Source of the DNA: Treponema sp.
Lineage (GTDB): Bacteria > Spirochaetota > Spirochaetia > Treponematales > Treponemataceae
DNA length: 33,761 nucleotides
Direction: 5' to 3'
Assembly: GCA_016288205.1 (NCBI GenBank)
Contig: JAEEYO010000044.1
Location: 1-33,761, forward strand
In this document: one piece after another, positions 10,837-33,511 of the stretch
Layout of the letters: the number at the start of each line of letters is the position of its first letter
Position numbering within the stretch: the first letter of the stretch is position 1
The notes under the pieces: model-generated
Database searches by the model: none
What the model was told of the DNA's origin: nothing
The model's input: only the letters and a program-made list of their open reading frames with translations
Program-made: the position numbers and the translations under genes

Positions 10837-11731
10837 AGTCATCCAGCATTTTCTTTACAATATTCTCAACAGACTCCTTTGGGCTGCCGTGAAGATAATA
10901 GTGCCAGAAACGGAAGCTCGTGTTGACATTTGCAAGCGACATCTGTGTTTTTATCTCGTCCCTTGTTATTCCGTCTTTTGAATGAGTGCAATAGTATCCT
11001 ATGATTTTATTTTCATCAAAGGCTATTCCATCCCCCTGAAGACGGCTCATAAAAAAAGCGATGTCCGTCGCCGGATGTCCAAGTCTCACGCTCTGCCAGT
11101 CACACAAAACAAGCTGATTTGATTTTTCATCGCGCAAGATATTTTCCGCGTGGAAGTCTCCGTGGCAGACACAGCTGCGGTCGGAATACCAATCCTTGTT
11201 CAGCTGATTTATATGCGAGGCAAGATCCTGGATTTTTGAAAAGTCAAGAATGTCCGATATCTCCGCCTTGTGCTCATCAAAAATTGATTTCCATTCTGAA
11301 AGACAGTTTTGAATCTCATCGCCTGAAATTTGAAGCGGCTCCGGCTCTTCATTTTTCAAAAACTCCGGCACAGAAAGCCCGTGCACTTGGACAAGCAAGG
11401 TCATGATTTTATCAAAATCACCGTCGCTTAAGCTTTGCTTTTCAACAGGAGCATATTCGCCCATTATTATCTGGACGGTCTCCTCATCGAAATCACAAAG
11501 AAAAATCTCCGGCAAAAAGACATCATGCGCTGCAGCCATCTCCTTATAAAATCTTGCTTCCTTAAGACAGGACTCCCAGACCTCAAGCCCATTTTCTTTT
11601 TCGAGCAGCTTAGACCTTTCCGCACTCTTTGCAATCTTGTGGTCATCAAGAAGACAAATCTCCGCACCACTCTTTCCCTGCGTGAGCTTTCGTAAGATAT
11701 GGGAATCAACATACTTTTTAAAATCTTTCAT
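10751..11731 (-). CDS. APH/choline-kinase-family phosphotransferase
   Basis: 326 residues. The kinase-like fold is shown by the catalytic loop HGDFHAENIL (about residue 190) and the metal-binding CDWQSV with the following GHPATDIAFF, as in small-molecule kinases of the aminoglycoside phosphotransferase/choline kinase/EcKinase group. The substrate cannot be read from sequence; an antibiotic, choline or a sugar are all possible. The last 28 codons are antisense to the 3' end of ddl and look like a low-complexity extension past the normal family end (residues after about 300), perhaps from loss of an earlier stop. The start at 11731 is uncertain because the nearest GGAG is 12 bases away. It follows the FAD oxidoreductase gene by 24 bases and is probably in its operon. 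Confidence 0.8.
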   Translation of the reverse strand: MKDFKKYVDSHILRKLTQGKSGAEICLLDDHKIAKSAERSKLLEKENGLEVWESCLKEARFYKEMAAAHDVFLPEIFLCDFDEETVQIIMGEYAPVEKQSLSDGDFDKIMTLLVQVHGLSVPEFLKNEEPEPLQISGDEIQNCLSEWKSIFDEHKAEISDILDFSKIQDLASHINQLNKDWYSDRSCVCHGDFHAENILRDEKSNQLVLCDWQSVRLGHPATDIAFFMSRLQGDGIAFDENKIIGYYCTHSKDGITRDEIKTQMSLANVNTSFRFWHYYLHGSPKESVENIVKKMLDDSNGLLKEQDARTDPHRKFQPQELPEAAD

Positions 11732-11755
11732 ATCTTTTCATCACTCCCCAAGCCT

Positions 11756-13240
11756 CTATATTTCAATGCTTCTTCCATCACGCTTTAGAATCCGCTGGAC
11801 GGCAAACTTTCCTGAAATAACTGCAATCGGAAGTCCTCCAGGGCTCATAATCCACTGACCGGCAAGAAAGAGATTGTCAATCCCCTTTACAAGCCCCTTA
11901 AAGCGCATCTGCTTGTTTCCGACCGTGGTGATAAATCCCATGTATGAGCCGTGGAAAGCATTGCAGTACCGGCTGTAGGTAAGAGGTGTCCAGCAGTCAA
12001 GCAGCTCGATTTTTCCTTCAAGCTCAGGGAACTCCTTTATAATTCTTTTTGTAAGCTCCTTCGAAAGCTCGTCTTTTTTCTGCTTGTATTCTTCCCTGCT
12101 GAGGCTGCTCCAGAATTCATAGTCAGCATCATACTGCACGATATTTGCCTGGAGAACAGTTTTTCCTTCCGGCGCAAAGCTCTTGTCGTAGGCAAAGCAT
12201 TTTACTGACATCCGTGAAAAACTTTGAGAACCGATTGAAAGCGGCTCGCAGTCAAAGAAAACAGTGTCATCTACAGAGAAAGTGTCGTCTATCGCGTATG
12301 CAACCTGGAAGCCGCTGTTGACAGGATAGGCCTTGCGGTTTTCATAAGCCTTCTTAAGATTCTTCGGCATATATTTACGGTCAATCAGTTTGTCATAGAG
12401 GAAGCTGAAATCAAGGGCGCTTATTACTTCATCCGCCTTTACAACGGTTCCGTCTTCAAGCTCAATTCCGGTCGCCTTTTTCTTTTCAATGATGATTTTC
12501 CTCACCGGAGTATTTGTATGCAAAACGCCGCCCATATCCTTGAATTTTTGCACAATCCTGAGCGACATCGCAAGAGATCCTTTCAAAGGAATGTCTCCGT
12601 TCCCTCTCGCCATTGTAGCATAAGAAACCAGGAAGGAATAAGCTGTGTAATCTGCCGGAAGATAATCCTGCATCAGCTTTTTGATGACGGGATTGTGGAA
12701 TCTTTCTGCCAGCTGACGACAATTGAGTTTTCCGTATTCCTTCATAACTTTTGGCATGTACGCCATTTCTTTTCCCATCTCGATGTAGTCTTTGATTTTC
12801 ATCATATCAAGCGGTTTTTCGGAGGGAATGACACAGCATTTTGCGTATTCCACATACTGAATGAATTTGCGGATTTCAGCTTCGTCTTCTGGAGCGGCCT
12901 CTATCATTTCTTTCTCTGTTCTTTTCAAGTCTGTCCAGAGAGTAATCTCCTGATTTCCGATTCTGCTGGAATAGAATTTCTTGGGACTGACATATTGCGT
13001 ATTCTCATCAATTGCGCCGACTGCTTTCCAAACCTGCCAGAGCTTTGTTTTTTGGTCTGTTCCTGTGAGCCAGTGAATGCAGTTATCAATATGATAGCCC
13101 TTGCGGTTCCAGCCCATACATTCGCCGCCAGCAACGGCATTCTTTTCGTAGATCTCAGCCTCGAACCCAGCCCTTAATGCGTAAATTCCCGCGCTGAGCC
13201 CGCCTATTCCACCACCAATAATTATTACTTTCTTTGACAT
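11756..13240 (-). CDS. FAD-dependent oxidoreductase, phytoene desaturase (CrtI)/COG1233 type
   Basis: 494 residues. The N-terminus is a clear dinucleotide-binding fold, IIIGGGIGGLSAGIYALRAG, followed by the second FAD contact YEKNAVAGGECMGW. The C-terminal FAD motif DNLFLAGQWIMSPGGLPIAV is kept. Length and order fit the CrtI-like desaturase/isomerase group, which acts on lipid-like polyenes but also includes many enzymes of unknown substrate. No other carotenoid genes lie nearby, so a carotenoid role is doubtful. ATG at 13240 has CGGAGAA upstream. It is divergent from the creatininase/MerR operon and shares a 164-base control region with it. Confidence 0.85.
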   Translation of the reverse strand: MSKKVIIIGGGIGGLSAGIYALRAGFEAEIYEKNAVAGGECMGWNRKGYHIDNCIHWLTGTDQKTKLWQVWKAVGAIDENTQYVSPKKFYSSRIGNQEITLWTDLKRTEKEMIEAAPEDEAEIRKFIQYVEYAKCCVIPSEKPLDMMKIKDYIEMGKEMAYMPKVMKEYGKLNCRQLAERFHNPVIKKLMQDYLPADYTAYSFLVSYATMARGNGDIPLKGSLAMSLRIVQKFKDMGGVLHTNTPVRKIIIEKKKATGIELEDGTVVKADEVISALDFSFLYDKLIDRKYMPKNLKKAYENRKAYPVNSGFQVAYAIDDTFSVDDTVFFDCEPLSIGSQSFSRMSVKCFAYDKSFAPEGKTVLQANIVQYDADYEFWSSLSREEYKQKKDELSKELTKRIIKEFPELEGKIELLDCWTPLTYSRYCNAFHGSYMGFITTVGNKQMRFKGLVKGIDNLFLAGQWIMSPGGLPIAVISGKFAVQRILKRDGRSIEI

Positions 13241-13263
13241 AGTTTTCTCCGAATCTATATTCT

Positions 13264-13292
13264 ATAGAGTACCACAAAAAATATTTTGTCAA
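13264..13292 (-). promoter_or_regulatory. Possible promoter and palindrome before the FAD oxidoreductase
   Basis: Minus strand TTGACA at 13292-13287 is a perfect -35. The -10 is unclear (CTCTAT or TATAGA, at non-ideal spacing). A perfect inverted repeat ACAAAA-4-TTTTGT at 13274-13289 overlaps the spacer and may be an operator. Confidence 0.4.
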
Positions 13293-15085: not shown

Positions 15086-18000
15086 TTACATTGCGACTTC
15101 AACTTCAATCTGCTTGATTTTTCCGTTTCTGGCAAAGAGCTCTGCGGTTTCTGCGGCACTCAGGAAAGCACCGTCCTTTACGCTGTACTCGCGGCTCTGT
15201 CCGTCCACGGTGATTTTCAGATTTTCCTTACCTGAACCTGCACGACTGTAAGTTACGGGAGTTCCGCACCAAGAGAAACGCAAAGTTCCGTCCTCGAAAA
15301 ATTCCGAATCCTTTAGAATCAGCGGCTTGAAGTTTCCGCATCCGTTTACGATGTCAACACCAAGCTCTCCCCAGCGTGTAAGAACTTCCTCCTTAACCTG
15401 TCCTGTCATTCCAGGCTGTTTCGCTCCCTGGCCCTTGGGAGTGTGTGAATATGGGTCGGCAGGGAAAGCCCCGTAAATCTCCGCCTCCTTGTTGAATCCT
15501 ATTCCGGCACGCACATCGTAATATGCCTTCGTCAGATCCTCAATCACCTTGGGGGACTCACCGTTTTTGATTGCGGAAATCGCATTTTCCTGAACGGCGA
15601 GAAGAAGCTTTGACACCATGTGCCAGTAGATGCTTCCAAGTCCCTCGTAGGCATAGAAGGTTCCGCTTCGTCCGGTAAAGCTCTGGTGGTTGAAAGTCTT
15701 CTCATACAGATTCGCAAGGGTCTCAAGTTCCTGGGCATTCGGCTTCTGATTTTCGGGAAGCGAGGCACAGAACTCGCGCAGCAGACGGACATTGCAGAAC
15801 TCACCGTTGAAATGCCAGTTGCCGTCGCAATCTGAATACAGGACCTTGCTGCCGGTCTTTTTGACAAACGAATCAAGCAGTGACAGCTCAGATTTTGAGT
15901 TCTCCGGCCTGACGACATCCTTTTCCTCAAACGCGGGAAGCTCCTTGTCCGGGTAAAGCATGTAAGAATTCTGTCTCGGCTCGTACATGCGGCTTCCACG
16001 AAGGGATTTCAAAAGACCGAGCACTTCATCCGGTTTCAAAAGCTCGGCGGAAAGCACGGCGACCTGTCCCTCAAGCATCTCCTGAAGATACTCGATTTCC
16101 ATTTTATCCGCGCTGATTTTCATCGTGTTGTATGCGTGATAAAGTCCGTCGTCCCTCTTGTTCAGGGCAATCGTAGTCTTGATGTGCGAAAGGATTGCCT
16201 CAAGAGCAGAAAGTATCTCAGACTTCTTAAGCTCCTTCTCTGATTTTCCATAGCCGTTTTTATACAGGGCGTTTCTTTCCGTCTCAAAAATCTCACCCTC
16301 GGCATCCGTAAATTTCTTTCGCAAGACAGAATCCGTGGCGACCTTTTCAGCAGGATTTTCAACGTAGAGTTTTCCAAGAGTGGCAAAACATCCGGCCACA
16401 TCGCTCGGCAGACTGAAACTTTCGGCCTTGCTCTCAGAAAAGAGCTTTATCAAAAAGCCAACGAAGCGGTGCAGGTAACAGAGAGTGACCATGGAAAGTC
16501 CGTAGCCCGCAAGAGCATTGTTCGCGTCGTTCCACTCAGGTCTCTGTGTGTTGAGCCAGATTCCACCTCCCGGCACAAAGTTCGCCATCTTCGCGATCAC
16601 AACCTGAATCAGTTTTGTCGCAAGGGTCACAAGGGCAACATCTGCGGAACCGGCTTTTCCGTCGGCACTGATAAGCTTTGCGTCCGAACCGTTTTTCGCA
16701 CTCTGATTCACCAAAAGCGTGCTGAGCTCACGGTCAAAGAGGATTGTGTTCCGCGGGTCCGAGGAAATCTCCTTGTATGACTTGATTCTGTAAGGCACGT
16801 TGGAGCTTGCATAAATCTTCTCGCCCAGCTCACTTACAAGCTGAGTCCTGTTCAGTTTTGAATAGATTTCCAAAAGCTTCTGCAGATAGATTACCTGATG
16901 GTCTCCCCAGTAACCGATTGAGGCCCATGGATTGTCAGGCTCAGGGATTTCCCAGTCCACGCCCGCACGTGAGATTCGGTATGGATTGAATCCTTCGATA
17001 GTCATCGCATTCAGGAATTTCGCGGTCATGTTCTTGATGTACTGAGGATAGGACCACGACAGGGCTTCCCAGTTCTGGAAAATGTCGCGCCAGTTTCCCT
17101 CATAATTCAAAATGGGATTTCCGTCACTGTCCCTCAAATGGATGTTGAACTTGTTCCATGGGCGGCTCGGATCTCCGTGTCTGCGGCTGAACGTGAGAGG
17201 CATGTACTCATAGAAAAGACGTGAGAGCTGAGGATTTTTTTCCGCCTGCACCGCCGACTCAAGCACGCCGTAATTCACGAATCCCTCGTTGTCCGCCGTA
17301 ACGGAAAGGGTTGTCTTTTCGGCAAGGGAGACGAGAGCCTTGTTCCTGCTTTCGACAAACTTGACGAAATCTTTCAGGTGGATTTTTCCGTTGTTCGCAA
17401 AGAATCCTCCGCGCATGATGTTGAACATCACGTTCTCCGAATGATGGACGCACGTCATTGTCTCCGCAGTCTGCTGTGAACCGTCCGCCTCTGCAATGTA
17501 AGTCTCCATGAGCTTCTTGCCATCGGCTATGTCCTTCTCAAGGGATGCCGTTATTTTCGCACGGTCGGAAAGCTCCTTTTTCAAGGCGACGATTTTACCC
17601 AGATCCAGCCTCGTGTCAAAGACCTGGTACCATGAGGAATTTGCGTCCTTACCCGAAAGCGAAACTCCCTTGCAGATATATGCCGCGGCTCTTTTTCCCT
17701 TCACGACATCCATTCTTTCAACCGAGCCTTTTTCCGCAAACTGATCGGGAGAGTCCGGGGAAAGATAAAGGTCATCGTCGGTGGAGAACCAGCTAACGTT
17801 CGCAAAAAGTCCCTCGCTCGGCTCAGCCTTATCCGCGACCATGGAAGAAAGCGCGAAAATTCCAAGCTTGGACTCGGCATCCAAATCAGTCTTTTTGTAG
17901 GCATCCAAAAGCACGCTCGTGTTGTTCTGCAAAGTGGCGGTCGAACACGCTGGCATAATGTTCCGGCATCCGTCCAAAACTTTTACGCTTACATCCCCGT

Positions 18001-18490
18001 CACCCAGATTCGTAATCACGCTCTTTCGCACAAGGCCGTATTTCGCAGAGGATGTCCATCCATAACGGAAAGCGAGCTGAAGGTCTCCGTTGATTTCCTC
18101 AAACCAGACTTCGGTTCCCGCCGCATTTTTGTAAATGTTCCTGCTGAGATTTTTTTCGACCGAGCGACGGATTGCAGGACTTGCGCTGAGAGAAGCAAAG
18201 GGTTCCCAGAGCACGCCCTTGTCCTTGCCGCTTTCAATCAGAATGGCAGTATAAGGCCCCGTGTATGATTTCGCATCGCTGACCTTATCGGCGGTATAAT
18301 ATGGAAAAATCGCATGGTCACAGTCAATTCGACCAGCAGTGTTTCCTCCCTGGGACCAACAGAAATTCCAGATGTCGGAAGCGCTGGTAATCGTCATAAA
18401 GAAATCTTCCATGCAGTCATAATTCTCAATCTTGTAGAACTGTCCGATTTCACCCGGTATGGTCGTAAAATAACCCTTAGCTTTTTTCAT
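15086..18490 (-). CDS. Large glycosidase/phosphorylase-like protein of unassigned family
   Basis: 1134 residues from ATG 18490, chosen because GGAG lies seven bases upstream; a reading from 18532 adds 14 codons without SD. No signal peptide or membrane segment, so it is probably cytoplasmic. It is rich in Trp, Tyr and acidic residues. Conserved-looking stretches are YEGNWRDIFQNWEAL (about residue 470), ASIGYWGDHQVIYLQKL (about 530) and TQRPEWNDANNALAGYG (about 650). The last resembles the DWND catalytic region of GH94-type phosphorylases, and the helical repeats fit an (alpha/alpha)6 barrel. I infer a sugar hydrolase or oligosaccharide phosphorylase acting on imported oligosaccharides, perhaps products of the neighbouring GH5 enzyme. 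The first 43 codons are repeated almost exactly at 22809-22939. Confidence 0.65.
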   Translation of the reverse strand: MKKAKGYFTTIPGEIGQFYKIENYDCMEDFFMTITSASDIWNFCWSQGGNTAGRIDCDHAIFPYYTADKVSDAKSYTGPYTAILIESGKDKGVLWEPFASLSASPAIRRSVEKNLSRNIYKNAAGTEVWFEEINGDLQLAFRYGWTSSAKYGLVRKSVITNLGDGDVSVKVLDGCRNIMPACSTATLQNNTSVLLDAYKKTDLDAESKLGIFALSSMVADKAEPSEGLFANVSWFSTDDDLYLSPDSPDQFAEKGSVERMDVVKGKRAAAYICKGVSLSGKDANSSWYQVFDTRLDLGKIVALKKELSDRAKITASLEKDIADGKKLMETYIAEADGSQQTAETMTCVHHSENVMFNIMRGGFFANNGKIHLKDFVKFVESRNKALVSLAEKTTLSVTADNEGFVNYGVLESAVQAEKNPQLSRLFYEYMPLTFSRRHGDPSRPWNKFNIHLRDSDGNPILNYEGNWRDIFQNWEALSWSYPQYIKNMTAKFLNAMTIEGFNPYRISRAGVDWEIPEPDNPWASIGYWGDHQVIYLQKLLEIYSKLNRTQLVSELGEKIYASSNVPYRIKSYKEISSDPRNTILFDRELSTLLVNQSAKNGSDAKLISADGKAGSADVALVTLATKLIQVVIAKMANFVPGGGIWLNTQRPEWNDANNALAGYGLSMVTLCYLHRFVGFLIKLFSESKAESFSLPSDVAGCFATLGKLYVENPAEKVATDSVLRKKFTDAEGEIFETERNALYKNGYGKSEKELKKSEILSALEAILSHIKTTIALNKRDDGLYHAYNTMKISADKMEIEYLQEMLEGQVAVLSAELLKPDEVLGLLKSLRGSRMYEPRQNSYMLYPDKELPAFEEKDVVRPENSKSELSLLDSFVKKTGSKVLYSDCDGNWHFNGEFCNVRLLREFCASLPENQKPNAQELETLANLYEKTFNHQSFTGRSGTFYAYEGLGSIYWHMVSKLLLAVQENAISAIKNGESPKVIEDLTKAYYDVRAGIGFNKEAEIYGAFPADPYSHTPKGQGAKQPGMTGQVKEEVLTRWGELGVDIVNGCGNFKPLILKDSEFFEDGTLRFSWCGTPVTYSRAGSGKENLKITVDGQSREYSVKDGAFLSAAETAELFARNGKIKQIEVEVAM

Positions 18491-18492
18491 GT
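18360..18492. repeat. 133-bp direct repeat, copy A (start of the large enzyme gene)
   Basis: Identical to 22809-22941 except one position (18476 C versus 22925 T, a silent Lys codon change). It covers the first 43 codons of the large enzyme gene plus two bases before its ATG. The copies have the same orientation, 4449 bases apart. Confidence 0.95.
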
Positions 18493-18506
18493 ATACACTC
18501 CATAAG

Positions 18507-18552
18507 GCTTGCCCTAAAGTGGGTCCTGCCATAGCTCTACTTTAAAGCAAGC
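18507..18552. promoter_or_regulatory. Inverted repeat upstream of the large enzyme gene
   Basis: GCTTGCCCTAAAGT (18507-18520) and ACTTTAAAGCAAGC (18539-18552) are complementary at 12 of 14 positions. On the minus strand a weak promoter (TTGATT, 17 bases, TAAAGT) overlaps the outer arm, so this may be an operator or a leader hairpin. Confidence 0.4.
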
Positions 18553-18579
18553 AAGCGCATAAATCAATAGGGGAGGTAC

Positions 18580-18648
18580 AAAAAAAATAAGATTTTAGTA
18601 CTAAAAGATTGGAACTTAGCTCGAAAATATGACTTTTTAGAAGTTCCC
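18580..18648 (-). terminator. Probable terminator of the GH5 gene
   Basis: Just after the GH5 stop, GGAACTT/AAGTTCC (18647-18641 with 18617-18611) forms a 7-bp stem with a long loop. The perfect AT palindrome TTTTAGTACTAAAA (18606-18593) follows, and then a stretch ending in eight T (18587-18580). It is AT-rich and therefore weaker than the other terminators here. Confidence 0.45.
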
Positions 18649-18649
18649 A

Positions 18650-20332
18650 TTATTTTTTCAATGTTATATCGTCAATATAGACATCTCCAGTCTTATGGTC
18701 AAAATTGTCAAAGTCAAACATTATGGCAGTAAACTGATTCCAGGAGAATTTAGATTCTGATTCATACCACTTTTGCGCAATATCCGACCAAGTGCCTCCG
18801 ATTTCTTTGGCAGCAGAAAGGGGAATCTCAATACTCTGCCATTTTCCCAAAGAAGCTTTTGAAGCCTTTACAGCATAAGTATTTCTCCACGGCAAGTGAT
18901 CCGCTCCATCATCTGAATCCACAAAATGAACATAGAAACTCTGGTTCAATTCGGTAAATTTAACGGAAAGGCTTATCTTTAACGAAGCATGCTCTTTTTT
19001 GACTTCAGACGCAATCAATTTAGGCGGTGTAATTTTATAGCAATTGCTCTGGCTTTCAGAATTATAATTGATATGCAAGCACTCGCCATGTCCGTCATTT
19101 AACTTTGTGGTTTTGACGTTTCCGACCGACAGTTGCTCAGACCATTTTCCGACAATGCCATCATACAAAATATATGGAGCCTTGGGAAAACTTTTTATAG
19201 CGACATTTGTTTTTGCGACGGCGGCTGAACTTGGCATGGAAAATCCGTATGATTCTACAATCTCTTTGTCGATGTCATCAGGGAAAATCATTCCGTGTTC
19301 CGCACCCTGAAAGAATCCGCTTCCCACGTCCATTGTCCAGACACAATAAGGGATGTCGTATTTTTCCAAAACGGAAGTCACTGCCTTATTATATGCAACC
19401 CTATCAGAATGATCGGTAGTAACCACGCTTCCCCTTTCGCCACAGAAAATATTCACCTTGTTCTTTTTTGCCCAATCGGATATTTTCTTTATGCGTTTTT
19501 CTATAAACTTTTCCGTACCATCCTGTGGATATGTTTTCCAAAGCTCATTGAACCAAGTGCCTTTTTTAGATTCTATATTCGGCATCCGTGATTTATCGTA
19601 AGGGAAAGGTATTCCGCTTGCCTTGGAAAAATCTTCGTCCACCGTTCCATCGCCTTGAAGGGAAAACAAAGCCGGCTCATAAAAATGGAAAGTGTAAATA
19701 ATATTGGAATCCTTGTAAGGTTTGATTTGGGTAAGTTCATCAATGCATGAACAGTTTGGGCCTGTAACTATAATGCTATGCTTTTTGTCATACTCCCTGA
19801 TGACATTGATGATTTTTTGCTGAACCTTTTGCCATTGACTTGGACTTATTGCCCAGGACGGCTCATTCATGATTTCATACAATATGTATTCGCTTCTATT
19901 TGCATAACGCTTTGCAAGCACAGGCCACAAAAGTTCCAGATGCTCTTCAATTTTCTTGATTGATTTTTCATCGTCTTCAACAGCACCCCACGCATGGTCA
20001 TCAATAATCAGATAGATTTGATTTTTTTCAGCCCAGTCACAAACTTCATCCAATTTTTTAAGTACAGTTTCGCTCAGCACCCCTGTAATTTTTGGTTCCA
20101 TAAGATATCCAAAATAGCAGGCAAGACGCACCACATCCACGCCCATGCTTTTAAGGCATTCAAAATCAGCTTCATCATAGATATTTAGGGCGGGCATCTG
20201 ATTTATGCACCAGTCTTCGCGGTAAAAAAATGCAAAAGTATTTACACCCTTGGAAAAAGGCAGCTTTGCAGGCTTACAAAATGCCGAAGCCATCAGCAAA
20301 CAAAAAAGTGTCAAAATCAGATTTTTTTTCAT
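18650..20332 (-). CDS. Secreted GH5-family glycoside hydrolase with C-terminal carbohydrate-binding-like domain
   Basis: 560 residues from ATG 20332 (AAGGAG ten bases upstream; the ATG at 20365 has no SD). The N-terminus MKKNLILTLFCLLMASAFC is a signal peptide, cut most likely after ASA. A GH5 (beta/alpha)8 catalytic domain covers about residues 25-380: acid/base Glu in YEIMNEPSW (about 156), HFYEP, nucleophile Glu in IFCGERGS (about 298) and a late VWTMDVG. Family members cut beta-1,4 glucans, mannans or related polymers; the subfamily cannot be told here. The remaining 170 residues form a beta-rich domain ending DVYIDDITL, a pattern of galactose-binding-like or CBM11-like modules. The gene is divergent from a two-component system with palindromic sites between them, so it is its likely target. 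By eye it is AT-richer than the flanking genes. Confidence 0.88.
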   Translation of the reverse strand: MKKNLILTLFCLLMASAFCKPAKLPFSKGVNTFAFFYREDWCINQMPALNIYDEADFECLKSMGVDVVRLACYFGYLMEPKITGVLSETVLKKLDEVCDWAEKNQIYLIIDDHAWGAVEDDEKSIKKIEEHLELLWPVLAKRYANRSEYILYEIMNEPSWAISPSQWQKVQQKIINVIREYDKKHSIIVTGPNCSCIDELTQIKPYKDSNIIYTFHFYEPALFSLQGDGTVDEDFSKASGIPFPYDKSRMPNIESKKGTWFNELWKTYPQDGTEKFIEKRIKKISDWAKKNKVNIFCGERGSVVTTDHSDRVAYNKAVTSVLEKYDIPYCVWTMDVGSGFFQGAEHGMIFPDDIDKEIVESYGFSMPSSAAVAKTNVAIKSFPKAPYILYDGIVGKWSEQLSVGNVKTTKLNDGHGECLHINYNSESQSNCYKITPPKLIASEVKKEHASLKISLSVKFTELNQSFYVHFVDSDDGADHLPWRNTYAVKASKASLGKWQSIEIPLSAAKEIGGTWSDIAQKWYESESKFSWNQFTAIMFDFDNFDHKTGDVYIDDITLKK

Positions 20333-20387
20333 ACGCCAAAATCTCCTTATATTAAAATTATCCATTTGAAATTCAAAAAAATATACA

Positions 20388-20438
20388 GAGTTTAACTCAC
20401 AATTTTGTTTGCTTATGGAAAATTTGTGAGTTTAACCC
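20388..20438. promoter_or_regulatory. Palindromic operator-like sites between GH5 and the histidine kinase
   Basis: GAGTTTAACTC (20388-20398) is a near-perfect palindrome. GAGTTTAAC recurs at 20428-20436, exactly 40 bases on, four helical turns apart. AACTCACAA (20394-20402) and TTGTGAGTT (20424-20432) also make a perfect 9-bp inverted repeat. The two divergent genes lack good -35 boxes, which suits an activator. The adjacent NarL-type regulator is the natural candidate to bind here. Confidence 0.55.
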
Positions 20439-20475
20439 TCTATTTAATTCGCAAACTTTGAAGTAATATATAGTA

Positions 20476-22143
20476 ATGATCAAAAGAATCTTTTTTGAAA
20501 CAGCACTTATTCTCTTTGCGTCTCTTTCTGTTTTTTCTCTTACGCAAGCGGAAATTGAGGAATTTCAGGACAGCTGGAATTCTCAGAAAAATGAATTTCT
20601 AAAAAGCGAAGTCAGGCAATGTGCAGGAAACGAAAACAACACCCTTTTTTTGATGGCCGCTGATAATGTTGACGGTGGACATTCCGTAGTTTGGGCTTTT
20701 CATGCTGGCGAATACAACAAGGACAACAGGATTAAGCCAATCTGGGACAAATTAAGCCTTTCATGCAATTCCATAAAGAGCCTTGTTTTCAGTCCTTTTT
20801 CCAACAAGTTTTATTTTAGTTCCGCTTGGGCCGTCTACGATTCCCCTGAAAAAAACACGCAGGGACTTTATATCTTGAATCAAACCCACAGTGAAACACC
20901 ACCGTACATAACGCTGGACCATCACTTGATGGAAGTGGGCGAAGGTTGTTTGCTTGTCAATAAAACCGGAGTGTGGCTTTTACATGATGTTTTCAACGGC
21001 GACGCTTCATTTCAATCAAGCCGGCTTTACAAAATTGAAGATGAAAAGGGAAACTTTGTATTTCAGATAAATCCTGCCACAGAAAAAACTGATTTTCTTT
21101 CCTTCTATAATTATGAGCACAACACAAAAAAAGACAAGGCCATCATAGTCAAATTCATTCAGGACGGAGTTTTCCAAAGCACGGATTATACCCTTTTACT
21201 CTGCGATAAAGATGGAGCTTCATGGTGGCTATATAATTGCGTAAATAAAAAGCTCAAGAAATATGAAAGCTATTGGACAGTCAAGAAAAAGGCTCTGCTT
21301 ATCGATAAAAGATACGAGCTTGGAATATGGCCAAATTTAAATCGAAGAAACGCATTGCAAATCATTTTACAAATTATTGCGCTTATTTGTTTTATTTTTA
21401 CGGCAAGCATTTTAATCATAAAACTTGTTCATAAAATCAAGCATGACAAAAACACAAGTACAATTCTCAAAGAGCGGAACAAAATGATTTTTGACATTCA
21501 GGAAAAAGAGCGTGCAAAAATCAGTCGCGACATTCACGACTCCGTTGTTCAGGACATCCGCGTATTAAGGCTGGAAACGGAAAATCTTGTTGTAGATGAA
21601 AAATCAAAGGCGAGGCAAACAAAAATTGCGGATCTTGCAACGGACTGCATAATCAAATTGAGGAACATCTGCTACAATCTTACACCGGCAGAACTTGCAA
21701 ATCACAACACGGGAGATTCTTCAAAACTTGAATTGATTTCCATAATCAACTCGCTGGTCCAACAATTCAGCTCACGAACTCATATTCCATGCGTCTTTAA
21801 AGTCGAAGAAGGCTTTGAATATCCGGTGCTTGAAAAAGAAAAGACGCAAAATCTCTTCCGCGTGATTCAAGAAAGCCTCACAAACATAGAAAAACATTCG
21901 TACGCGACACAGGCTTCCATCTTTTTGAAAAAGGACGGCAACACGCTTTTCATTTACATAACCGATGACGGAATCGGCTGCAATCCAAATGAGCTGGACA
22001 AAAAATTGAAGAGCAAAGAACACCTAGGCTTGCGTTCGATGAAGGACAGGATGGAATTGATTGGCGGCTCCATAGAATTTTTTACATCGCAAAACGACGG
22101 AATGGAAATCAAAATTGAATTGCCACTGGAAGACGCAAAATGA
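20476..22143 (+). CDS. NarL/LiaS-type sensor histidine kinase with periplasmic sensor domain
   Basis: 555 residues. A signal-like hydrophobic start (residues 5-24) is followed by about 265 residues outside the membrane, rich in aromatic residues and short beta-like repeats; I cannot place this part in a known sensor family. One membrane segment is near 295-318. HisKA_3 dimerisation follows with the phospho-accepting His354 in SRDIHDSVVQD, then a HATPase_c domain with the N-box QESLTNIEKHS, DDGIGC and GLRSMKDRMELIGG. It would phosphorylate the regulator encoded next, whose start overlaps by four bases. No clear SD precedes ATG 20476. Its position opposite a secreted GH5 enzyme suggests it senses a polysaccharide or its fragments; this is an inference from context. 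Confidence 0.9.
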   Translation: MIKRIFFETALILFASLSVFSLTQAEIEEFQDSWNSQKNEFLKSEVRQCAGNENNTLFLMAADNVDGGHSVVWAFHAGEYNKDNRIKPIWDKLSLSCNSIKSLVFSPFSNKFYFSSAWAVYDSPEKNTQGLYILNQTHSETPPYITLDHHLMEVGEGCLLVNKTGVWLLHDVFNGDASFQSSRLYKIEDEKGNFVFQINPATEKTDFLSFYNYEHNTKKDKAIIVKFIQDGVFQSTDYTLLLCDKDGASWWLYNCVNKKLKKYESYWTVKKKALLIDKRYELGIWPNLNRRNALQIILQIIALICFIFTASILIIKLVHKIKHDKNTSTILKERNKMIFDIQEKERAKISRDIHDSVVQDIRVLRLETENLVVDEKSKARQTKIADLATDCIIKLRNICYNLTPAELANHNTGDSSKLELISIINSLVQQFSSRTHIPCVFKVEEGFEYPVLEKEKTQNLFRVIQESLTNIEKHSYATQASIFLKKDGNTLFIYITDDGIGCNPNELDKKLKSKEHLGLRSMKDRMELIGGSIEFFTSQNDGMEIKIELPLEDAK

Positions 22144-22775
22144 AAAACACGCTTTATATCATAGACGATCACAACATGGTGCGAATTGGACTTAAAACAT
22201 GGCTCGAAAATCATACACAGTGGCGAGTCTCAAAGGATTTCGCCTCTTCAAACGAGTGCCTTGATTTTTTGGACGATCTAAAATCACCAAACAAAGCTGA
22301 TTCGGGAGAAAATATTTTTCCAGAGATTATCATTGTTGATGTTCAGCTGATTAACGAAACCGGATTTAGTTTTGTCAAAAAACTTTCTGAAAAATGGTCG
22401 GAAATAAAATGCGTCATGTACTCAATGTATGACACAACAGGTTTTGTACTTCAAGCAAAGGACTCGGGTGCAAAAGGCTACATCTCAAAGGTCGCAAAAG
22501 AAGAAGAGCTTGTCCATTGTCTTGAAGTCGTTCAAAGCGGAGGTACATATCTTGAACAATACATGCTGGATGCACAGAATAAAATTGATTCCATAGTCTC
22601 TATTCTTTCAAAGCAGGAGCGAAATATTTTTGAAGCGCTACTTCAGGAAAAATCCAACAAACAGATTTGCGACGAACTTTTCATTTCAGCGCGCACTGTA
22701 GAAAACTACACCAGCCGACTTTACGCAAAAATCGGTGTAAAGAATAGAGAGGAATTGATTGCAAAATACAAGTAA
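22140..22775 (+). CDS. NarL/FixJ-family response regulator
   Basis: 211 residues. The receiver domain (1-135) has the acidic pair IIDDH, the phosphorylation site Asp67 in IIIVDVQL, the switch Ser in YSMYD and Lys in GYISK. The C-terminal LuxR-type helix-turn-helix is at about 150-208 (LSKQERNIFEALLQEKSNKQ, then ISARTVENYTSRLYAKIGV). There is a short insertion before the phosphorylation site (KSPNKADSGEN). It is the partner of the kinase, shares its transcript, and probably controls the GH5 gene and its own promoter through the sites at 20388-20438. No T-rich terminator hairpin follows; transcription may run into the remnant at 22778-22939 from the antisense side. Confidence 0.92.
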   Translation: MKNTLYIIDDHNMVRIGLKTWLENHTQWRVSKDFASSNECLDFLDDLKSPNKADSGENIFPEIIIVDVQLINETGFSFVKKLSEKWSEIKCVMYSMYDTTGFVLQAKDSGAKGYISKVAKEEELVHCLEVVQSGGTYLEQYMLDAQNKIDSIVSILSKQERNIFEALLQEKSNKQICDELFISARTVENYTSRLYAKIGVKNREELIAKYK

Positions 22776-22777
22776 AA

Positions 22778-22939
22778 TTAGAATCCTAGATTGTCATTTA
22801 CGAGTATGCAGAAATTCCAGATGTCGGAAGCGCTGGTAATCGTCATAAAGAAATCTTCCATGCAGTCATAATTCTCAATCTTGTAGAACTGTCCGATTTC
22901 ACCCGGTATGGTCGTAAAATAACCTTTAGCTTTTTTCAT
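22778..22939 (-). pseudogene. Chimeric gene remnant: start of the large carbohydrate enzyme joined to the end of a LUD-domain gene
   Basis: An open frame of 53 codons on the minus strand. The first 43 codons, from ATG 22939, are the start of the enzyme encoded at 15086-18490, with one silent difference. After a Cys codon at the junction (22808/22809) it continues in frame as ILVNDNLGF and stops. The LUD protein at 25998-26627 ends ILVNDSLGF at its own stop, and the DNA of those codons agrees at 21 of 27 positions, differing mostly at silent sites. A GAGGT SD precedes the ATG by six bases, unlike the leader of the full copy, so it could be translated. I see a deletion scar, not a functional enzyme, though a small protein cannot be excluded. 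The LUD match is short. Confidence 0.75.
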
Positions 22940-22941
22940 GT
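22809..22941. repeat. 133-bp direct repeat, copy B
   Basis: Second copy of 18360-18492 in the same orientation, with one mismatch at 22925. Together the copies bracket the GH5, kinase and response-regulator genes. The 302-base gap 22776-23077 holds this repeat, the chimeric remnant and the hairpin at 22965-22998; I see nothing else clear in it. Confidence 0.95.
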
Positions 22942-22964
22942 GAATACCTCAATAGTTATAGGAG

Positions 22965-22998
22965 AGCCCCGAAATCATCGAAACGACTTATCGGGGTT
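22965..22998. other. Stem-loop upstream of the chimeric remnant
   Basis: AGCCCCGA (22965-22972) pairs with TCGGGGTT (22991-22998), with an inner TCG-AAA-CGA hairpin. There is no T-run on either side, so it is not a normal terminator. It would lie in the leader of the remnant's transcript. Confidence 0.4.
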
Positions 22999-23077
22999 TA
23001 CCTATACACTAAAGCAAAAAAGTGCAAAAAGGATTTCTTACTCCCCTCTACATTTTAAGGGCATTCTTAAACCAAGC

Positions 23078-24721
23078 TTACTTTTTCCCACTCGCAAGTC
23101 TCGCAGGATACCACTTTACGAACCACGCCGTGAAAAGTCCCATCAGCACAGGCACGACATTGTTTATGACAAAAATCCAGCTGCCCAGCCCAGCCCTTCG
23201 CAAGAGCCAAGTCCACAAAGCGGTCAGAACGTAAAGGACTCCCCAGCAGAACGCAAGAATATAATTCGTCTTCATAAAAAGAGGATTCCTATACGCAGCG
23301 TCACCATTGTAATCATATTTCACGTAAGTCGCGCTCAAAGGCTCCCTCACGAGGCAGGATCCGAGCCACAGCGCACCAAACACAGCATAGCCCGCGTTCG
23401 TTACAAGCTCTCCGTTTCCAGTAATGTTTGCGACCGCCGAAAGGATTGCGACCAGGGCAAAGGAAAGCAGGTCCCAGATAACGAGCCTGTGTTTTCTCAT
23501 AAGAAGCGGAACCAAGGCACAGACGGCAAGGGTGATTACAGAGCCTACCCCGGGATTTATTGCGACCGCAATCCAGAACGTAATCCAAGGAATGAGCATG
23601 GTCATCATCGAGGGATTCTTTTGCTCCGATGTTTTTTTGCCCTCATCTTTTTTCTCTTCAACGCGTGAATCCAGGGCACCGAAAAATTTGTCCCAGCTCA
23701 TCATAAGTGAAAAATCACCTGTAACAGAATAAAGCCCCTTTCCCAGAGCCTCCGCTCCCTCCATCTCGCCGGATGAAATCGCCTTCCAAACTTTAAATGG
23801 TGTATTCACGACCGTCGTTGCCTTTAAGCTTCCGTCAGTAAAAACCTCACTTCCATTTTTTCCCAGACGAATCTGATACCGTGTTCCCAGATCAGTATAG
23901 TTCATCTCAAGGACGCGGTCTTTTCCGTCATAGGAAGCCTCATTGTAAAGAGCCGCCATCTGCCGTGTGAAAATCAAATCCTCAGCTTCCTTTTCACCCG
24001 TGGTCTTGCTGATCCCCCAGCTTACATCCGCCATCCTCTCAAAGACTTCCTTCGGATAAAGCTGAGTGCAAAGTTTCCTGTTCAGCTCCTCCGGGATTTT
24101 TCCATTTGCGAATTCCACTCCGGCTTCCCTGACAAAAGCAAGATATTCGGATGTCCTTGCAGAGACTTCCTTCACGCCGAAAAGCTCTCCCTGTCCGCAG
24201 AAAATCGTCGCATAATTATCCTTGCCGAGGAAGTGGTCGAACATCTGAAGGACGCTGTCGTAATTTTTTTCCGCTGAATAAAAGCCGCAGGTTGAGATGA
24301 GCACGTGTCTTTTTTCCTTCATCTCATATCGCGCGTCATGGCTTCCGCTTCCGTTTCCTGATGTGTTCTCGCTCATAAAAGGAAGGCTCATCGGCAGCTG
24401 GCGGTCAATCAGATTCTTGAGGATTCCGGGCACGTTAAAATAATAGAGCGGAAAGCTCCAGATCACCATATCAGCCTGGATGATTTTCTCAATGACATCC
24501 TTCATGTCGTCCTTTATGCAGCAGGAGCCGGGAGTGTGTTTCCAGCATGCAAAGCATCCCCTGCACGGAGCGATTTTCAAGGAGGCGGCGTGAACTTCAT
24601 CCAGAGTCACTTCCCCATTTCTTTCGGCGACCTCACGGACACCCTCAACAAAACTTTCCGCAAGCCTGAGTGAATTGCTTGTCTTTCCTTTAGGACTTCC
24701 ATTAATCAAGAGTATTCTCAT
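23078..24721 (-). CDS. Flavodoxin-fold reductase fused to SCP2-like and membrane domains
   Basis: 547 residues in three parts. Residues 1-200 are a flavodoxin-like NAD(P)H:FMN oxidoreductase fold: INGSPKGKTSNS phosphate loop, the cysteine pattern PCRGCFACW...CCIKDD, and FPLYYFNVPGILKNLIDR. Residues about 260-350 resemble an SCP2 (sterol-carrier) fold, ending in a segment with GLYSVTGDFSLMM. Residues about 375-545 contain six or so membrane helices. Such fusions suggest flavin-linked redox work on a lipophilic or membrane substrate; the reaction is unknown. The start at 24721 lies within the PadR gene (20-base overlap) with GGAGG nine bases upstream, so expression is coupled to the regulator. 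The stop is at 23078, with only a weak hairpin after it. Confidence 0.8.
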   Translation of the reverse strand: MRILLINGSPKGKTSNSLRLAESFVEGVREVAERNGEVTLDEVHAASLKIAPCRGCFACWKHTPGSCCIKDDMKDVIEKIIQADMVIWSFPLYYFNVPGILKNLIDRQLPMSLPFMSENTSGNGSGSHDARYEMKEKRHVLISTCGFYSAEKNYDSVLQMFDHFLGKDNYATIFCGQGELFGVKEVSARTSEYLAFVREAGVEFANGKIPEELNRKLCTQLYPKEVFERMADVSWGISKTTGEKEAEDLIFTRQMAALYNEASYDGKDRVLEMNYTDLGTRYQIRLGKNGSEVFTDGSLKATTVVNTPFKVWKAISSGEMEGAEALGKGLYSVTGDFSLMMSWDKFFGALDSRVEEKKDEGKKTSEQKNPSMMTMLIPWITFWIAVAINPGVGSVITLAVCALVPLLMRKHRLVIWDLLSFALVAILSAVANITGNGELVTNAGYAVFGALWLGSCLVREPLSATYVKYDYNGDAAYRNPLFMKTNYILAFCWGVLYVLTALWTWLLRRAGLGSWIFVINNVVPVLMGLFTAWFVKWYPARLASGKK

Positions 24722-25997: not shown

Positions 25998-26627
25998 CTA
26001 AAATCCCAGACTGTCGTTCACGAGGATCACGTGGATTCTGTCCTTGTGGCGTGAGAATCTTGTAATCAAAATCTGGCAGCAGATTGTGTCGGGGGACTTG
26101 CAGTTCATGCATGAGCCTGTCTTTGTACATGGAGTAGAAAGTCCAAATCTCTGAGAGTTAATCGGGGCCGCGACACTTCTTGCCCTCTTCATCGCGCTGT
26201 CCACATCGGGGCATACCTTGTTCATGCTCACTATAAAGACGACCTTTTTCGGTCCCTGGGCAATGGCAGAAACACGGTTTGCGTTTCCGTCAATGTTGAT
26301 AAGCACACCGTCGTCGGTCATGGCATTCGCGCTGGAAAGAAAAACATCCGCATCATAGGCCGCAAGCATCGCCGCACGCTTGTCTTCCCATTCATCTCTG
26401 TCGATGAACTTGTACTTGTCGGTTTTCAAAGCATCAAAAAGTCCGATTTCGTGAACGCTCATTGCACCGCCCATCGTCACCGTACTTCCCTCGGGAATCA
26501 GCTCAAGAGCCTTTTTAAGAGCCTCCTCCTTGCTCTCCGCATAATATCCGCTCATGTTCCTTGACTCAAGTCCCTTGATGATTTTTGCCGCCAAAAGATT
26601 ATTTCTCTTCACAATGTTCTCATTCAT
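25998..26627 (-). CDS. LUD-domain protein (LutC/YkgG-like lactate utilisation family)
   Basis: 209 residues. The LUD fold is indicated by the N-terminal NNLLAAKIIKGLESRNM, the ESKEEALKKALELIPEGSTVTMGGAMSV region, DVFLSSANAMTDDGVLINID and AQGPKKVVFIVSMNKV. Near the C-terminus there is a cysteine group (CTKTGSCMNCKSPDTICC) that could bind metal or an Fe-S cluster. In other bacteria LUD proteins act with Fe-S oxidoreductases in L-lactate oxidation; no LutA or LutB partner is nearby, so that role is not supported here. The start has GGAG eight bases upstream. The end of this gene is echoed in the chimeric remnant at 22778-22807. Confidence 0.88.
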   Translation of the reverse strand: MNENIVKRNNLLAAKIIKGLESRNMSGYYAESKEEALKKALELIPEGSTVTMGGAMSVHEIGLFDALKTDKYKFIDRDEWEDKRAAMLAAYDADVFLSSANAMTDDGVLINIDGNANRVSAIAQGPKKVVFIVSMNKVCPDVDSAMKRARSVAAPINSQRFGLSTPCTKTGSCMNCKSPDTICCQILITRFSRHKDRIHVILVNDSLGF

Positions 26628-31218: not shown

Positions 31219-31932
31219 TTATCTAGCCCTGAATGATATGAAAAGTCCATAAATTATAAGCGAGTCAAAAATCAGATAGAAAAAGGCCATGTAGATTTTC
31301 GCCCATAATTTGCTCGTACTGAAAATGCACTGATAAACAGTGATTATCGAAGTGATAATAAATCCGACGGCAAAGAAAGTGTAAATCCAGATATTTCCGA
31401 AGAACCTGCTCAAGATAAAACCGATGCAGAAAATCCAGGACAAAACACGGAAAATTGTAAACGTCGAGCTTTTATGTATCTCCGCATGTTGCGCAAGTTC
31501 GTTGTTAAAGCCTTCCTGATTTTCCAAAAATTCCGATGTATAAAAACGTGTCCTGTCATTCATATAAATGATGAATTTATTCTCAGAAATGCACTCTATC
31601 TTTTTTATTTCCGTCAGATTATAAGTTTTTACACTTCCACCGTTTGTTATCACCATGGAATTCTCATCCGTGAATTCAAACGAATATTCGGAAAAATTTT
31701 TCTTGAGTTTTTTGGAAGCGATGAAAACTATGAATACGCAGAATATTGCCAATAAAGAAAACATGATGGGATAGATATGTCTTATGCTCTCAAAGTTTGG
31801 GTCAAGTTTGGGAAGAAAAAAATAGAACAGGACGAAGTTGAAGATTATGGCAAAGGCATAAATACAAAACATTTTTATTCTGTATTTATTCACGGCAAGT
31901 TTTAATTTGTTCGGGTCATTTTTATAAATCAT
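31219..31932 (-). CDS. Membrane protein with YcxB-like cytosolic domain
   Basis: 237 residues from ATG 31932, preceded by GGAG at a good distance; the upstream ATG 31950 has none. Two membrane segments (about 20-45 and 58-75) are followed by about 70 polar residues with the pattern MVITNGGSVKTYNLTEIKKIECISE, which recalls the PH-like YcxB domain. Three more hydrophobic segments follow near the C-terminus. The function is unknown. It is the first gene of a long minus-strand run with a strong promoter at 31978-32006. It is AT-richer than its downstream neighbours. Confidence 0.7.
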   Translation of the reverse strand: MIYKNDPNKLKLAVNKYRIKMFCIYAFAIIFNFVLFYFFLPKLDPNFESIRHIYPIMFSLLAIFCVFIVFIASKKLKKNFSEYSFEFTDENSMVITNGGSVKTYNLTEIKKIECISENKFIIYMNDRTRFYTSEFLENQEGFNNELAQHAEIHKSSTFTIFRVLSWIFCIGFILSRFFGNIWIYTFFAVGFIITSIITVYQCIFSTSKLWAKIYMAFFYLIFDSLIIYGLFISFRAR

Positions 31933-31977
31933 TTTTTTCTCCGCTCTCATTTGAAAAATTAATTATCAAACACTTCC

Positions 31978-32006
31978 ATTATACCACCCAAGCAGTACAC
32001 CGTCAA
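31978..32006 (-). promoter_or_regulatory. Promoter of the seven-gene minus-strand run
   Basis: TTGACG (32006-32001), 17 bases, TATAAT (31983-31978) on the minus strand, 46 bases before the start at 31932. It is nearly consensus and is back to back with the promoter of the LytTR regulator. Confidence 0.75.
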
Positions 32007-32063
32007 GTTAAGATTGATGTCGGAAAATCATCAGAAACAATAAGAGAGTGGCATATAAATCTA

Positions 32064-32091
32064 TTGAAAAAAGTTTATCTTGCGGTATAAT
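32064..32091 (+). promoter_or_regulatory. Promoter of the LytTR regulator operon
   Basis: TTGAAA (32064-32069), 16 bases, TATAAT (32086-32091). A start site 6-7 bases further would place the SD AGGTG (32098-32102) at the very beginning of the transcript. Confidence 0.65.
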
Positions 32092-32108
32092 ACATTCAGG
32101 TGTGAAAA

Positions 32109-32795
32109 TTGAACATTTCGGTATGTGATGACGAAGCTAAAATCCTGGAAGAAATTGCTTCATTTATAAAACATGAATTTCCTCAAAGCACTGTGCGAAC
32201 TTTTACAAGCGGAGAATCTTTCATTTCTTCTGCTCAGGAAAGTCCGGACGTTCTTTTTCTTGACATAGACATGCCCGGGATGAGCGGAATGGATGTTGCA
32301 TCACTTCTTGCACAGGAAAAAGCCCGTACACTTGTTGTTTTTGTAACAGCACATGACGAGCTTGTATACGACAGCTTCAAGTACCATCCATTTGCCTTTG
32401 TAAGGAAAAAATATCTTACTGACGAACTTCGCAATGTTTTGAAAGATTGTGAGACGGAAATTGAAGGAAGAAACAGACATTTTGTTTTCCAAACCGCATC
32501 CAAAACCATAAGCCTAGCACAAAGCGACATTCTCTATTTTGAAAGCCAGGCGAATTATCTTGCGGTCTACACAAAGGACGGAGATTACCGCTTGCGTTCA
32601 ACAATGACTAACATAGAAAATGAGCTCCATAACAGTGACTTCCTCAGAATCCACAAAGGTTTTCTTGTAAATCTTGAGCATATCAAAATCCTAAAGTCCG
32701 ACACTCTGGAACTTGACAACGGAGCAAAACTCCCCATCGGAAAATCATATTCAGAGTCGGCAAAAGAAAGCATATTAAGGTACATGCGCAGATGA
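32109..32795 (+). CDS. LytTR-family response regulator
   Basis: 228 residues beginning at TTG 32109, seven bases after AGGTG. The receiver domain has MNISVCDDE, the phosphorylation Asp52 in LFLDIDMPGMSG, and TAHD and RKK near the usual Thr and Lys positions. The C-terminal LytTR DNA-binding domain (about 125-225) shows IFYFES-like ILYFESQANYLAVYTKDG and FLRIHKGFLVNLEHIKIL. These regulators, as in AgrA, VirR and LytR, bind paired direct repeats and often control transporters or peptides. The kinase gene overlaps the end by four bases and an ABC transporter gene follows. Confidence 0.93.
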   Translation: MNISVCDDEAKILEEIASFIKHEFPQSTVRTFTSGESFISSAQESPDVLFLDIDMPGMSGMDVASLLAQEKARTLVVFVTAHDELVYDSFKYHPFAFVRKKYLTDELRNVLKDCETEIEGRNRHFVFQTASKTISLAQSDILYFESQANYLAVYTKDGDYRLRSTMTNIENELHNSDFLRIHKGFLVNLEHIKILKSDTLELDNGAKLPIGKSYSESAKESILRYMRR

Positions 32796-33511
32796 TTGGA
32801 AACAAGAAAAAGGAACTTGAAGAGCTGAATGAAAAGATTCTCGAACTTGAAGCGCAGAACAAGGATTTAAAGTACGAGCTTGATTCATACAAATGGCAGA
32901 TGGAAGAAATCACAAGGCAGGAAGAAGAAATCAGGCTTTTGCATCAGAACACAAGAAAACTCAAGCACGACATGCGCAATCACCTTATGGTAATGACTTC
33001 CTACATCAACAGCGGAGACTACGAGAACGCAAAGAATTATATCTCGCAGATTCTGGAAAAACTGAATGCAGTTAAAAGTTATGTTGAGACAGGAAACCCT
33101 CTTTTAAATCACATCCTCAACGACAAGGTGGAACTTTGCCGCCAAGAAGGAATAGACGTAAAGGCAGACATCGGAAAAGCGTCCTTTGATAAAATGAAGG
33201 GCATAGATTTTTCCGCCGTATTTTCCAATGCAGTTGACAATGCCATAGAACACGAAAGACTGGAACCCAAAAAAGAAATCGCAATCAGCGTGTACGAAAA
33301 AAAGGGGTATGACGTCATCGCCGTAAGGAACAGGATTTCGCATTCGGTTCTGGAATCAAATCCAAATTTAAAGTCCACCAAAACGGATGAAGAAAAACAC
33401 GGTTACGGTGTAAGTCAAATCAGGGAAATTGCTGAATCTTATGAAGGCATGACCGATTTTTACGAAGAAGACGGTTTCTTTATCGTAAATGTTTTTATCC
33501 CAAAAAACTGA
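32792..33511 (+). CDS. Soluble GHKL sensor kinase (AgrC-like catalytic part)
   Basis: 239 residues with no membrane segment. The first 55 residues form a charged coiled coil. LKHDMRNHLMV is the H-box of the AgrC/CitA-like type, and a GHKL ATPase domain follows with FSNAVDNAIEH (N-box) and KHGYGVSQIREIAE (G-box). It would phosphorylate the LytTR regulator. Without a membrane sensor it must respond to a cytoplasmic signal or to a partner, possibly the ABC transporter encoded 52 bases downstream. The start overlaps the regulator stop (ATGA). Confidence 0.9.
   Translation: MIGNKKKELEELNEKILELEAQNKDLKYELDSYKWQMEEITRQEEEIRLLHQNTRKLKHDMRNHLMVMTSYINSGDYENAKNYISQILEKLNAVKSYVETGNPLLNHILNDKVELCRQEGIDVKADIGKASFDKMKGIDFSAVFSNAVDNAIEHERLEPKKEIAISVYEKKGYDVIAVRNRISHSVLESNPNLKSTKTDEEKHGYGVSQIREIAESYEGMTDFYEEDGFFIVNVFIPKN

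What the first reader, a model, noticed from the sequence alone, without database searches (positions are those of the whole stretch)
18360..22941. 133-bp direct repeats bracket an AT-rich GH5/two-component block
Copies at 18360-18492 and 22809-22941 differ at one base and have the same orientation. Between them lie the GH5 enzyme, its likely sensor kinase and regulator, which look AT-richer than the flanks. This is the layout expected if a carbohydrate-use module was inserted or duplicated into the start of the large enzyme gene. Recombination between the repeats would remove the module and leave one intact enzyme gene, making a possible gain/loss switch.
Basis: partly seen in the sequence, partly recalled or inferred. 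Interest (0 to 1): 0.7.

Follow-up and report, generated by a model that had tools for sequence, protein, structure and literature searches.

The report
Glucan-enzyme module bracketed by gene-head repeats
In a gut-type Treponema, a small sugar-degrading gene set with its own likely on-switch sits between an intact enzyme gene and a 131-base broken-off start of the same gene fused to the tail of another gene; this matching stretch likely lets the set be gained, lost or multiplied by ordinary DNA recombination.

Summary
The repeats are real (18360-18492 and 22809-22941, one mismatch). The reading "inserted into the start of the enzyme gene" is only partly right. The large gene is a GH149 beta-1,3-glucan phosphorylase. 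It is intact, and its upstream leader (to 18597) is conserved in the closest genome found (G005), so copy A is the native gene start. Copy B is a relic: the first 131 coding bases of GH149 fused in frame to the last nine codons of a LUD-domain gene, the gene that follows GH149 in G005. The repeat is thus the whole homologous overlap between an intact GH149 and a deleted GH149-LUD operon. Between them lie a GH5 enzyme and a two-component system sharing a divergent promoter with the only two copies of a 16-bp operator-like motif found in this genome. A public 67-aa protein (P0001) matches, at 66 of 67 residues, the joint that A x B recombination would make; a near-identical GH5 comes from a 4,464-bp contig (the unit is 4,449 bp). 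Neither contig could be read, so live excision or amplification is unproven. The module is AT-rich but ordinary in codon use; its interval holds no integrase or transposase. A likely RecA-type gain/loss module; ordinary parts, unusual anchor.

The parts
15086..18490 (-). GH149 beta-1,3-glucan phosphorylase, 1134 aa from the native-looking ATG (18488-18490); the ORF can be read up to 18532
   Evidence: NCBIfam NF058639 equivalog, 1310 bits against cut-off 1150, profile position 15 at residue 30 of the long ORF; 86% identical to G005
18360..18492 (-). repeat copy A = first 131 coding bases of the intact GH149 plus 2 bp
   Evidence: the relative G005 agrees with A, not B, at the one mismatch
18491..18597 (-). 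leader A, native upstream region of GH149
   Evidence: homologous to the G005 GH149 leader; the blastn alignment runs 15094-18597
18650..20365 (-). GH5 cellulase-family enzyme, likely exported (signal-like N-terminus read by eye)
   Evidence: Pfam PF00150, 145 bits
20387..20402 (+). operator-like motif AGAGTTTAACTCACAA, first arm of a dyad in the GH5/HK divergent promoter
20424..20439 (-). operator-like motif, second arm (1 mismatch)
20476..22143 (+). sensor histidine kinase (HisKA_3 + HATPase_c)
22140..22775 (+). NarL-type response regulator (Response_reg + GerE)
22778..22939 (-). relic ORF, 53 aa: GH149 head fused in frame to the last nine codons of a LUD-domain gene; its stop lies 2 bp from the response-regulator stop
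22778..22807 (-). LUD tail (ILVNDNLGF + stop)
   Evidence: the 27 C-termini with 7 or more of 9 matches, out of 149,007 examined (overlapping loci counted more than once), are LUD proteins or this relic
22809..22941 (-). repeat copy B
22942..23077 (-). leader B, a different upstream region with a strong predicted hairpin (z -4.1) and GAGG before the ATG

Best explanation
A GH5 enzyme gene and the two-component system that likely controls it lie on a 4,449-bp unit between an intact GH149 gene and a relic made of the GH149 start fused to a LUD-gene tail, and the unit was likely placed there, and can likely be lost or multiplied, by ordinary (RecA-type) crossover within the 133-bp GH149 start that gene and relic share. 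Shown: the repeat; a leader on copy A that is conserved in G005; the in-frame head-tail fusion of copy B; the GH149-LUD order in G005; an operator-like motif found in this genome only in the GH5/kinase promoter; a public protein equal to the predicted recombinant joint except for one residue. Inferred: an ancestor or donor carried a GH149-LUD operon under leader A that was deleted from GH149 codon 44 to near the LUD end; a crossover between that relic (linked to GH5-HK-RR) and a GH149 under leader B gave the present order. Untested: that excision, circles or tandem copies form now, and that the regulator binds the motif.
For: Two repeats only, spacing 4449. Leader A and the GH149 body both align to G005, so A is native. 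B reads MKKAKGYF...NFC-ILVNDNLGF-stop; in G005 LUD starts 26 bp after GH149 and ends in ILVNDNLGF; of 149,007 C-termini the 27 matching at 7 or more of 9 are LUD proteins or this relic. Both borders of the 133-bp identity are borders of homology: 2 bp before the ATG (leaders differ) and the GH149/LUD joint. Joint predicted for a circle or tandem copy = P0001 except M15K. Near-identical GH5 (P0123, 4 differences in 560) from a contig whose stated length, 4464, is about one unit. GH5, HK and RR occur together in G026 and G034 away from GH149. Exact 16-bp motif: 14 sites in 6 of 24 genomes, among them all 5 with an RR at least 77% identical; reversed-pattern control 0 in 24.
Against: P0001 could be a misassembly across the repeat, and its M15K change suggests a different strain or an old relic rather than a fresh circle. 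No source is given for P0001 or P0123 and their contigs could not be read. No genome with leader B on a full GH149 was seen; leader B has no homologue beyond chance in 146 genus genomes (at most 5 candidates scored per genome). The LUD tail differs from the window's LUD at 7 and from G005's at 6 of 30 bases while the head differs from A at 1 of 133, so head and tail have unequal histories (gene conversion possible). G015 has the motif before its GH5 without a close regulator (best match 35%), and G064/G029 have regulators (73%, 65%) without it.
Confidence: 0.5

Rival explanations
1. Old relic kept alike by gene conversion: the GH149-LUD deletion relic has long stood beside the module, and copying from the intact GH149 keeps its head near-identical; no excision or insertion by the repeats is involved.
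For: Identity spans exactly the shared homology; LUD tail is diverged (6-7 of 30 bases from G005 and window LUD) while the head has 1 mismatch in 133; P0001's changed start codon fits a standing relic.
Against: Does not explain two unrelated leaders on heads that are 99% alike, nor P0001 joining leader A to the tail, without a crossover or a leader replacement.
Confidence: 0.25
2. Recent copying of the GH149 head (illegitimate duplication) into a place that already held a LUD tail; recombination played no part and P0001 is unrelated or chimeric.
For: One mismatch in 133 bp is what a recent copy would show.
Against: The copy would have to start within 2 bp of the ATG and land in frame on the tail of exactly the gene that follows GH149 in G005.
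Confidence: 0.12
3. Integrase- or transposase-driven element with the 133 bp as its attachment duplication.
For: Direct repeats bracket a compact module with patchy presence in relatives.
Against: The interval's genes are GH5, kinase and regulator; no tRNA in the window; no similarity to held plasmids or phages; repeat ends coincide with gene homology, not with an att core.
Confidence: 0.05
4. Assembly artefact from mixed strains.
For: The window comes from a 77-contig assembly and public P0001 shows another joint.
Against: No second LUD gene besides 25998-26627 and no second copy of leader B were found in this genome, so copy B is not easily built from its other parts; a mixed strain could still supply them.
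Confidence: 0.08

Closest known systems
Direct-repeat-bracketed segments that RecA-type recombination deletes or tandemly amplifies (general knowledge; not read in a paper here)
   Same: Near-identical same-orientation repeats around a gene set, long enough for homologous recombination; the reciprocal joint is predicted and a matching public protein exists
   Different: The repeat is the head of a gene shared by an intact copy and an operon-deletion relic, so recombination would also swap the leader of the intact gene
Campbell-type single-crossover integration (general knowledge)
   Same: Order leader B-head-tail-module-leader A-head-body is what integration of a circle carrying leader A-head-tail would give
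   Different: No replicon, integrase or circle seen; the donor is inferred
GH149 beta-1,3-glucan phosphorylases (NCBIfam NF058639; PMC6484121, outline and abstract seen)
   Same: Full-length match above the equivalog cut-off
   Different: Nothing notable; GH149 itself is ordinary
Enzyme plus dedicated NarL/UhpA-type two-component pair
   Same: HisKA_3 kinase, NarL-type regulator and enzyme share a divergent promoter
   Different: The best equivalog models match far below their cut-offs, so the inducer is unknown

Membership tests
GH149 beta-1,3-glucan phosphorylase | full-length match to the curated equivalog model above cut-off | tested here: met
   1310 bits against 1150, profile 15-1133 of 1134
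GH149 beta-1,3-glucan phosphorylase | phosphorolysis of beta-1,3-glucans | not testable with these tools
   needs an assay
GH5 glycoside hydrolase | Pfam Cellulase domain above gathering score | tested here: met
   145.3 bits against 23.5
NarL-type two-component system | HisKA_3 + HATPase_c kinase next to a Response_reg + GerE regulator | tested here: met
   all four above their cut-offs, adjacent genes
Integrase-type mobile element | integrase or recombinase gene in the element | tested here: not met
   ORFs of 100 aa or more overlapping 18360-22941 are the end of GH149, GH5, kinase, regulator, and one that begins at 22940 antisense to the next gene; domains of the first four
Integrase-type mobile element | attachment site at a tRNA | tested here: not met
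   no tRNA or tmRNA in the window
Transposon or IS | transposase and terminal inverted repeats | tested here: not met
   no transposase among the interval's genes; the 3 inverted pairs of 25 nt or more are 72-77% complementary and not at the unit's ends
RecA-type repeat-mediated gain/loss segment | near-identical direct repeats at both ends | tested here: met
   133 bp, one mismatch
RecA-type repeat-mediated gain/loss segment | recombinant joint observed | tested here: inconclusive
   P0001 equals the predicted joint at 66 of 67 residues, but its 811-bp contig could not be read
RecA-type repeat-mediated gain/loss segment | both states in the same population | not testable with these tools
   no reads and no second strain of the species held

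The most novel reading that the evidence does not exclude
The 133-bp gene head is a standing recombination handle: all four leader/body combinations circulate in the population, and the 4,449-bp unit, carrying an enzyme, its private sensor-regulator pair and that regulator's only operator, exists as integrase-free circles or tandem arrays that move between strains and at each event also swap the promoter of the GH149 gene.
Probability: 0.2. Interest if true: 0.65.

Novelty: new variant of a known kind. Interest (0 to 1): 0.42.

Why it matters
It would show how a fibre-degrading gut bacterium could gain, lose or multiply a self-regulated enzyme module without any dedicated mobile-element machinery, using the leftover of a deleted operon as the point of homology. 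The predicted joint is specific enough to be counted in existing metagenome reads. The 16-bp motif also offers a testable operator for a regulator family in Treponema.

Tried and rejected
Foreign origin from composition: rejected as evidence, because codon use is ordinary for the genome. Mobile element with its own enzymes: no integrase or transposase among the interval's genes, no tRNA in the window, no plasmid or phage match. Viral contigs holding the head-tail joint or the head: two pattern scans, none found. Leader B as a shared repeat, or as the flank of the neighbouring flavodoxin gene in relatives: no homologue beyond chance; the G005 match stops at the flavodoxin stop. LUD at 25998-26627 as source of the tail: differs at 7 of 30 bases. 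Rfam at gathering scores: no match in the window. Tandem repeats: one short array far away. Consensus promoter scan of 18300-23200: 13 sites against 12.2 in shuffles, terminators 7 against 4.4, so neither informs. Defence library: nothing informative for the interval's genes. At 1 mismatch the operator-like motif also occurs singly in G007, G036, G003 and G057, so only exact sites were weighed. Literature: GH149 with phosphorylase and Treponema (1 paper, passages seen), repeats/RecA terms (12 of 47 listed), Treponema rumen terms (12 of 48 listed) and single-crossover terms (2 listed): titles and abstract starts seen describe no such arrangement; this is not a full search.

Full report
Observation. 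The interval is AT-richer than both flanks. Against 128 ORFs sampled from 13 stretches of the same genome, GH5, kinase and regulator are at the 10th-14th percentile in GC3 but at the 27th-58th in codon-use score. The cassette in G026 is also AT-rich (0.38-0.39). Low GC is therefore no evidence of import.

Genes. The large gene is a GH149 beta-1,3-glucan phosphorylase. The interval holds a GH5 enzyme, a HisKA_3 kinase and a NarL-type regulator. Kinase/regulator equivalog models match only far below their cut-offs, so the inducer is unknown. Named relatives of the GH149 are mostly Treponema MAGs among the best hits.

Copy A is the native gene start. In G005, the closest genome found (86% protein identity), the GH149 leader aligns with the window's leader A up to 18597, and G005 has the A base at the one mismatch. 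The gene is thus not split.

Copy B is a relic. On the minus strand 22939-22778 reads the GH149 head (43 codons plus two bases) and then ILVNDNLGF-stop. In G005 a LUD-domain gene starts 26 bp after GH149 and ends in ILVNDNLGF (domain). Of 149,007 C-termini in the window and all loci held at that time (overlapping loci counted more than once), 27 matched at seven or more of nine positions, and all 27 are LUD proteins or this relic. The relic's stop lies two bases from the regulator's stop. So the 133 bp are the full homologous overlap between an intact GH149 and a GH149-LUD deletion: the identity ends 2 bp before the ATG, where leaders differ, and at the GH149/LUD joint. The LUD tail differs from G005's LUD at 6 and from the window's own LUD at 7 of 30 bases, whereas the head differs from A at 1 of 133; head and tail have unequal histories.

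Distribution. No copy like B was found in the other 199 genus genomes searched: 69 of them matched, and every listed match outside the own genome begins at 22808 or later, that is, without the LUD tail (at most 4 candidates scored per genome). Leader B has no match beyond chance in the 146 genomes (best E about 0.008 for one genome; at most 5 candidates scored per genome). GH5, HK and RR occur together in G026 and G034, away from GH149; in G034 a small gene lies between GH5 and HK. G009 has kinase and regulator but no GH5 match in the stretch taken. G005 has no GH5 match at E up to 1e-20 and no close regulator (best 36%); its completeness is 82%.

The recombination test. Recombination of A with B would give (i) a chromosome with a full 1134-aa GH149 behind leader B and (ii) a joint leader A-head-LUD tail in a circle or tandem copy. 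A search of 5.8 billion proteins (those of suitable length) with the relic ORF gave two hits. The first, P0001 (67 aa, 811-bp contig, 4 members), equals joint (ii) at 66 of 67 residues, the GH149 start methionine being lysine. The second, P0002, is a short GH149 start without the tail. A near-identical GH5 (P0123, four differences) is on a contig of 4464 bp, about one unit; such a length also fits a contig that ends inside unresolved repeats, or chance. Neither record names a source (the tool also writes '-' for proteins of the window itself, but the window encodes neither letter for letter), and neither contig could be read. P0001 may be a true recombinant, the un-swapped ancestral relic in another strain, or a misassembly across the repeat; the changed start codon favours a standing allele over a fresh circle. 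Of seven GH149 records whose starts I looked at (of 120 listed), the two nearest (P0003 99%, P0004 95%) start at MKKAKG while the G005-like one (P0005) starts at the upstream ATG; the other four also start at MKK. The first two would fit leader B on a full gene, but start calling is weak evidence.

Regulation. The GH5/HK promoter holds a dyad, AGAGTTTAACTCACAA and its inverse with one mismatch. I searched 24 genomes: 11 picked for regulator or GH5 matches and 13 for comparison, of which G067 (56%) and G003 (46%) still have a moderate regulator match. Exact sites number 14 in 6 genomes, among them all 5 with a regulator at least 77% identical; with one mismatch allowed 10 of 24 genomes have a match; the reversed pattern gives 0 in 24. 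In this genome the two sites of the promoter are the only ones at up to one mismatch. G015 has an exact site before its GH5 without a close regulator, and G064 and G029 have regulators (73%, 65%) without sites. Sites in G034 and G026 lie near genes that look exported (by eye). No such site was found at GH149, so the two-component pair likely serves GH5 and itself, not GH149.

Mechanism. I favour a RecA-type single crossover in the shared head between an operon-deletion relic linked to GH5-HK-RR and a GH149 under leader B. It accounts for the order, both borders, the two leaders and P0001. Gene conversion of an old relic is the main rival. Nothing here shows the switch working now.

Known kind. 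Repeat-mediated deletion/duplication and single-crossover integration are textbook processes (general knowledge). The unusual point is the anchor: the leftover of a deleted operon. GH149 substrate range is from PMC6484121 (abstract) and a passage in PMC10318527.

Noticed in passing
20387-20439 and G009, G015, G026, G034, G048 sites: A 16-bp motif AGAGTTNAACTCACAA lies before GH5 and kinase genes and, in G034 and G026, near several genes that look exported (by eye): a likely operator of a NarL-type regulator family in Treponema.
   Followed up: partly
22942-23030 and 18493-18560, minus strand: Both GH149 leaders can fold into hairpins that reach the ribosome-binding region (z -4.1 for leader B; z -1.7 for leader A, not significant); possible translational control of GH149.
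   Followed up: partly
L163 (G009:C76) 11251-13267: The GNAT2-LUD-GNAT block of window 25.4-27.4 kb is 87-89% identical in G009, where the LUD gene appears in two pieces, likely broken.
   Followed up: no
L082 (G034:C34) 3970-4681: In G034 a small lipoprotein-like gene (by eye) sits between GH5 and the kinase, and the two operator arms are about 700 bp apart, one before each gene.
   Followed up: no
L089 (G009:C1) 1714-5051: GH149 of G009 is in two frames (residues 16-881 and 905-1146), a likely frameshift.
   Followed up: no
31219-33511: A second AT-rich stretch (GC 0.35-0.41) with, by eye, a membrane protein, a LytTR-type regulator and a kinase-like protein at the window's end.
   Followed up: no
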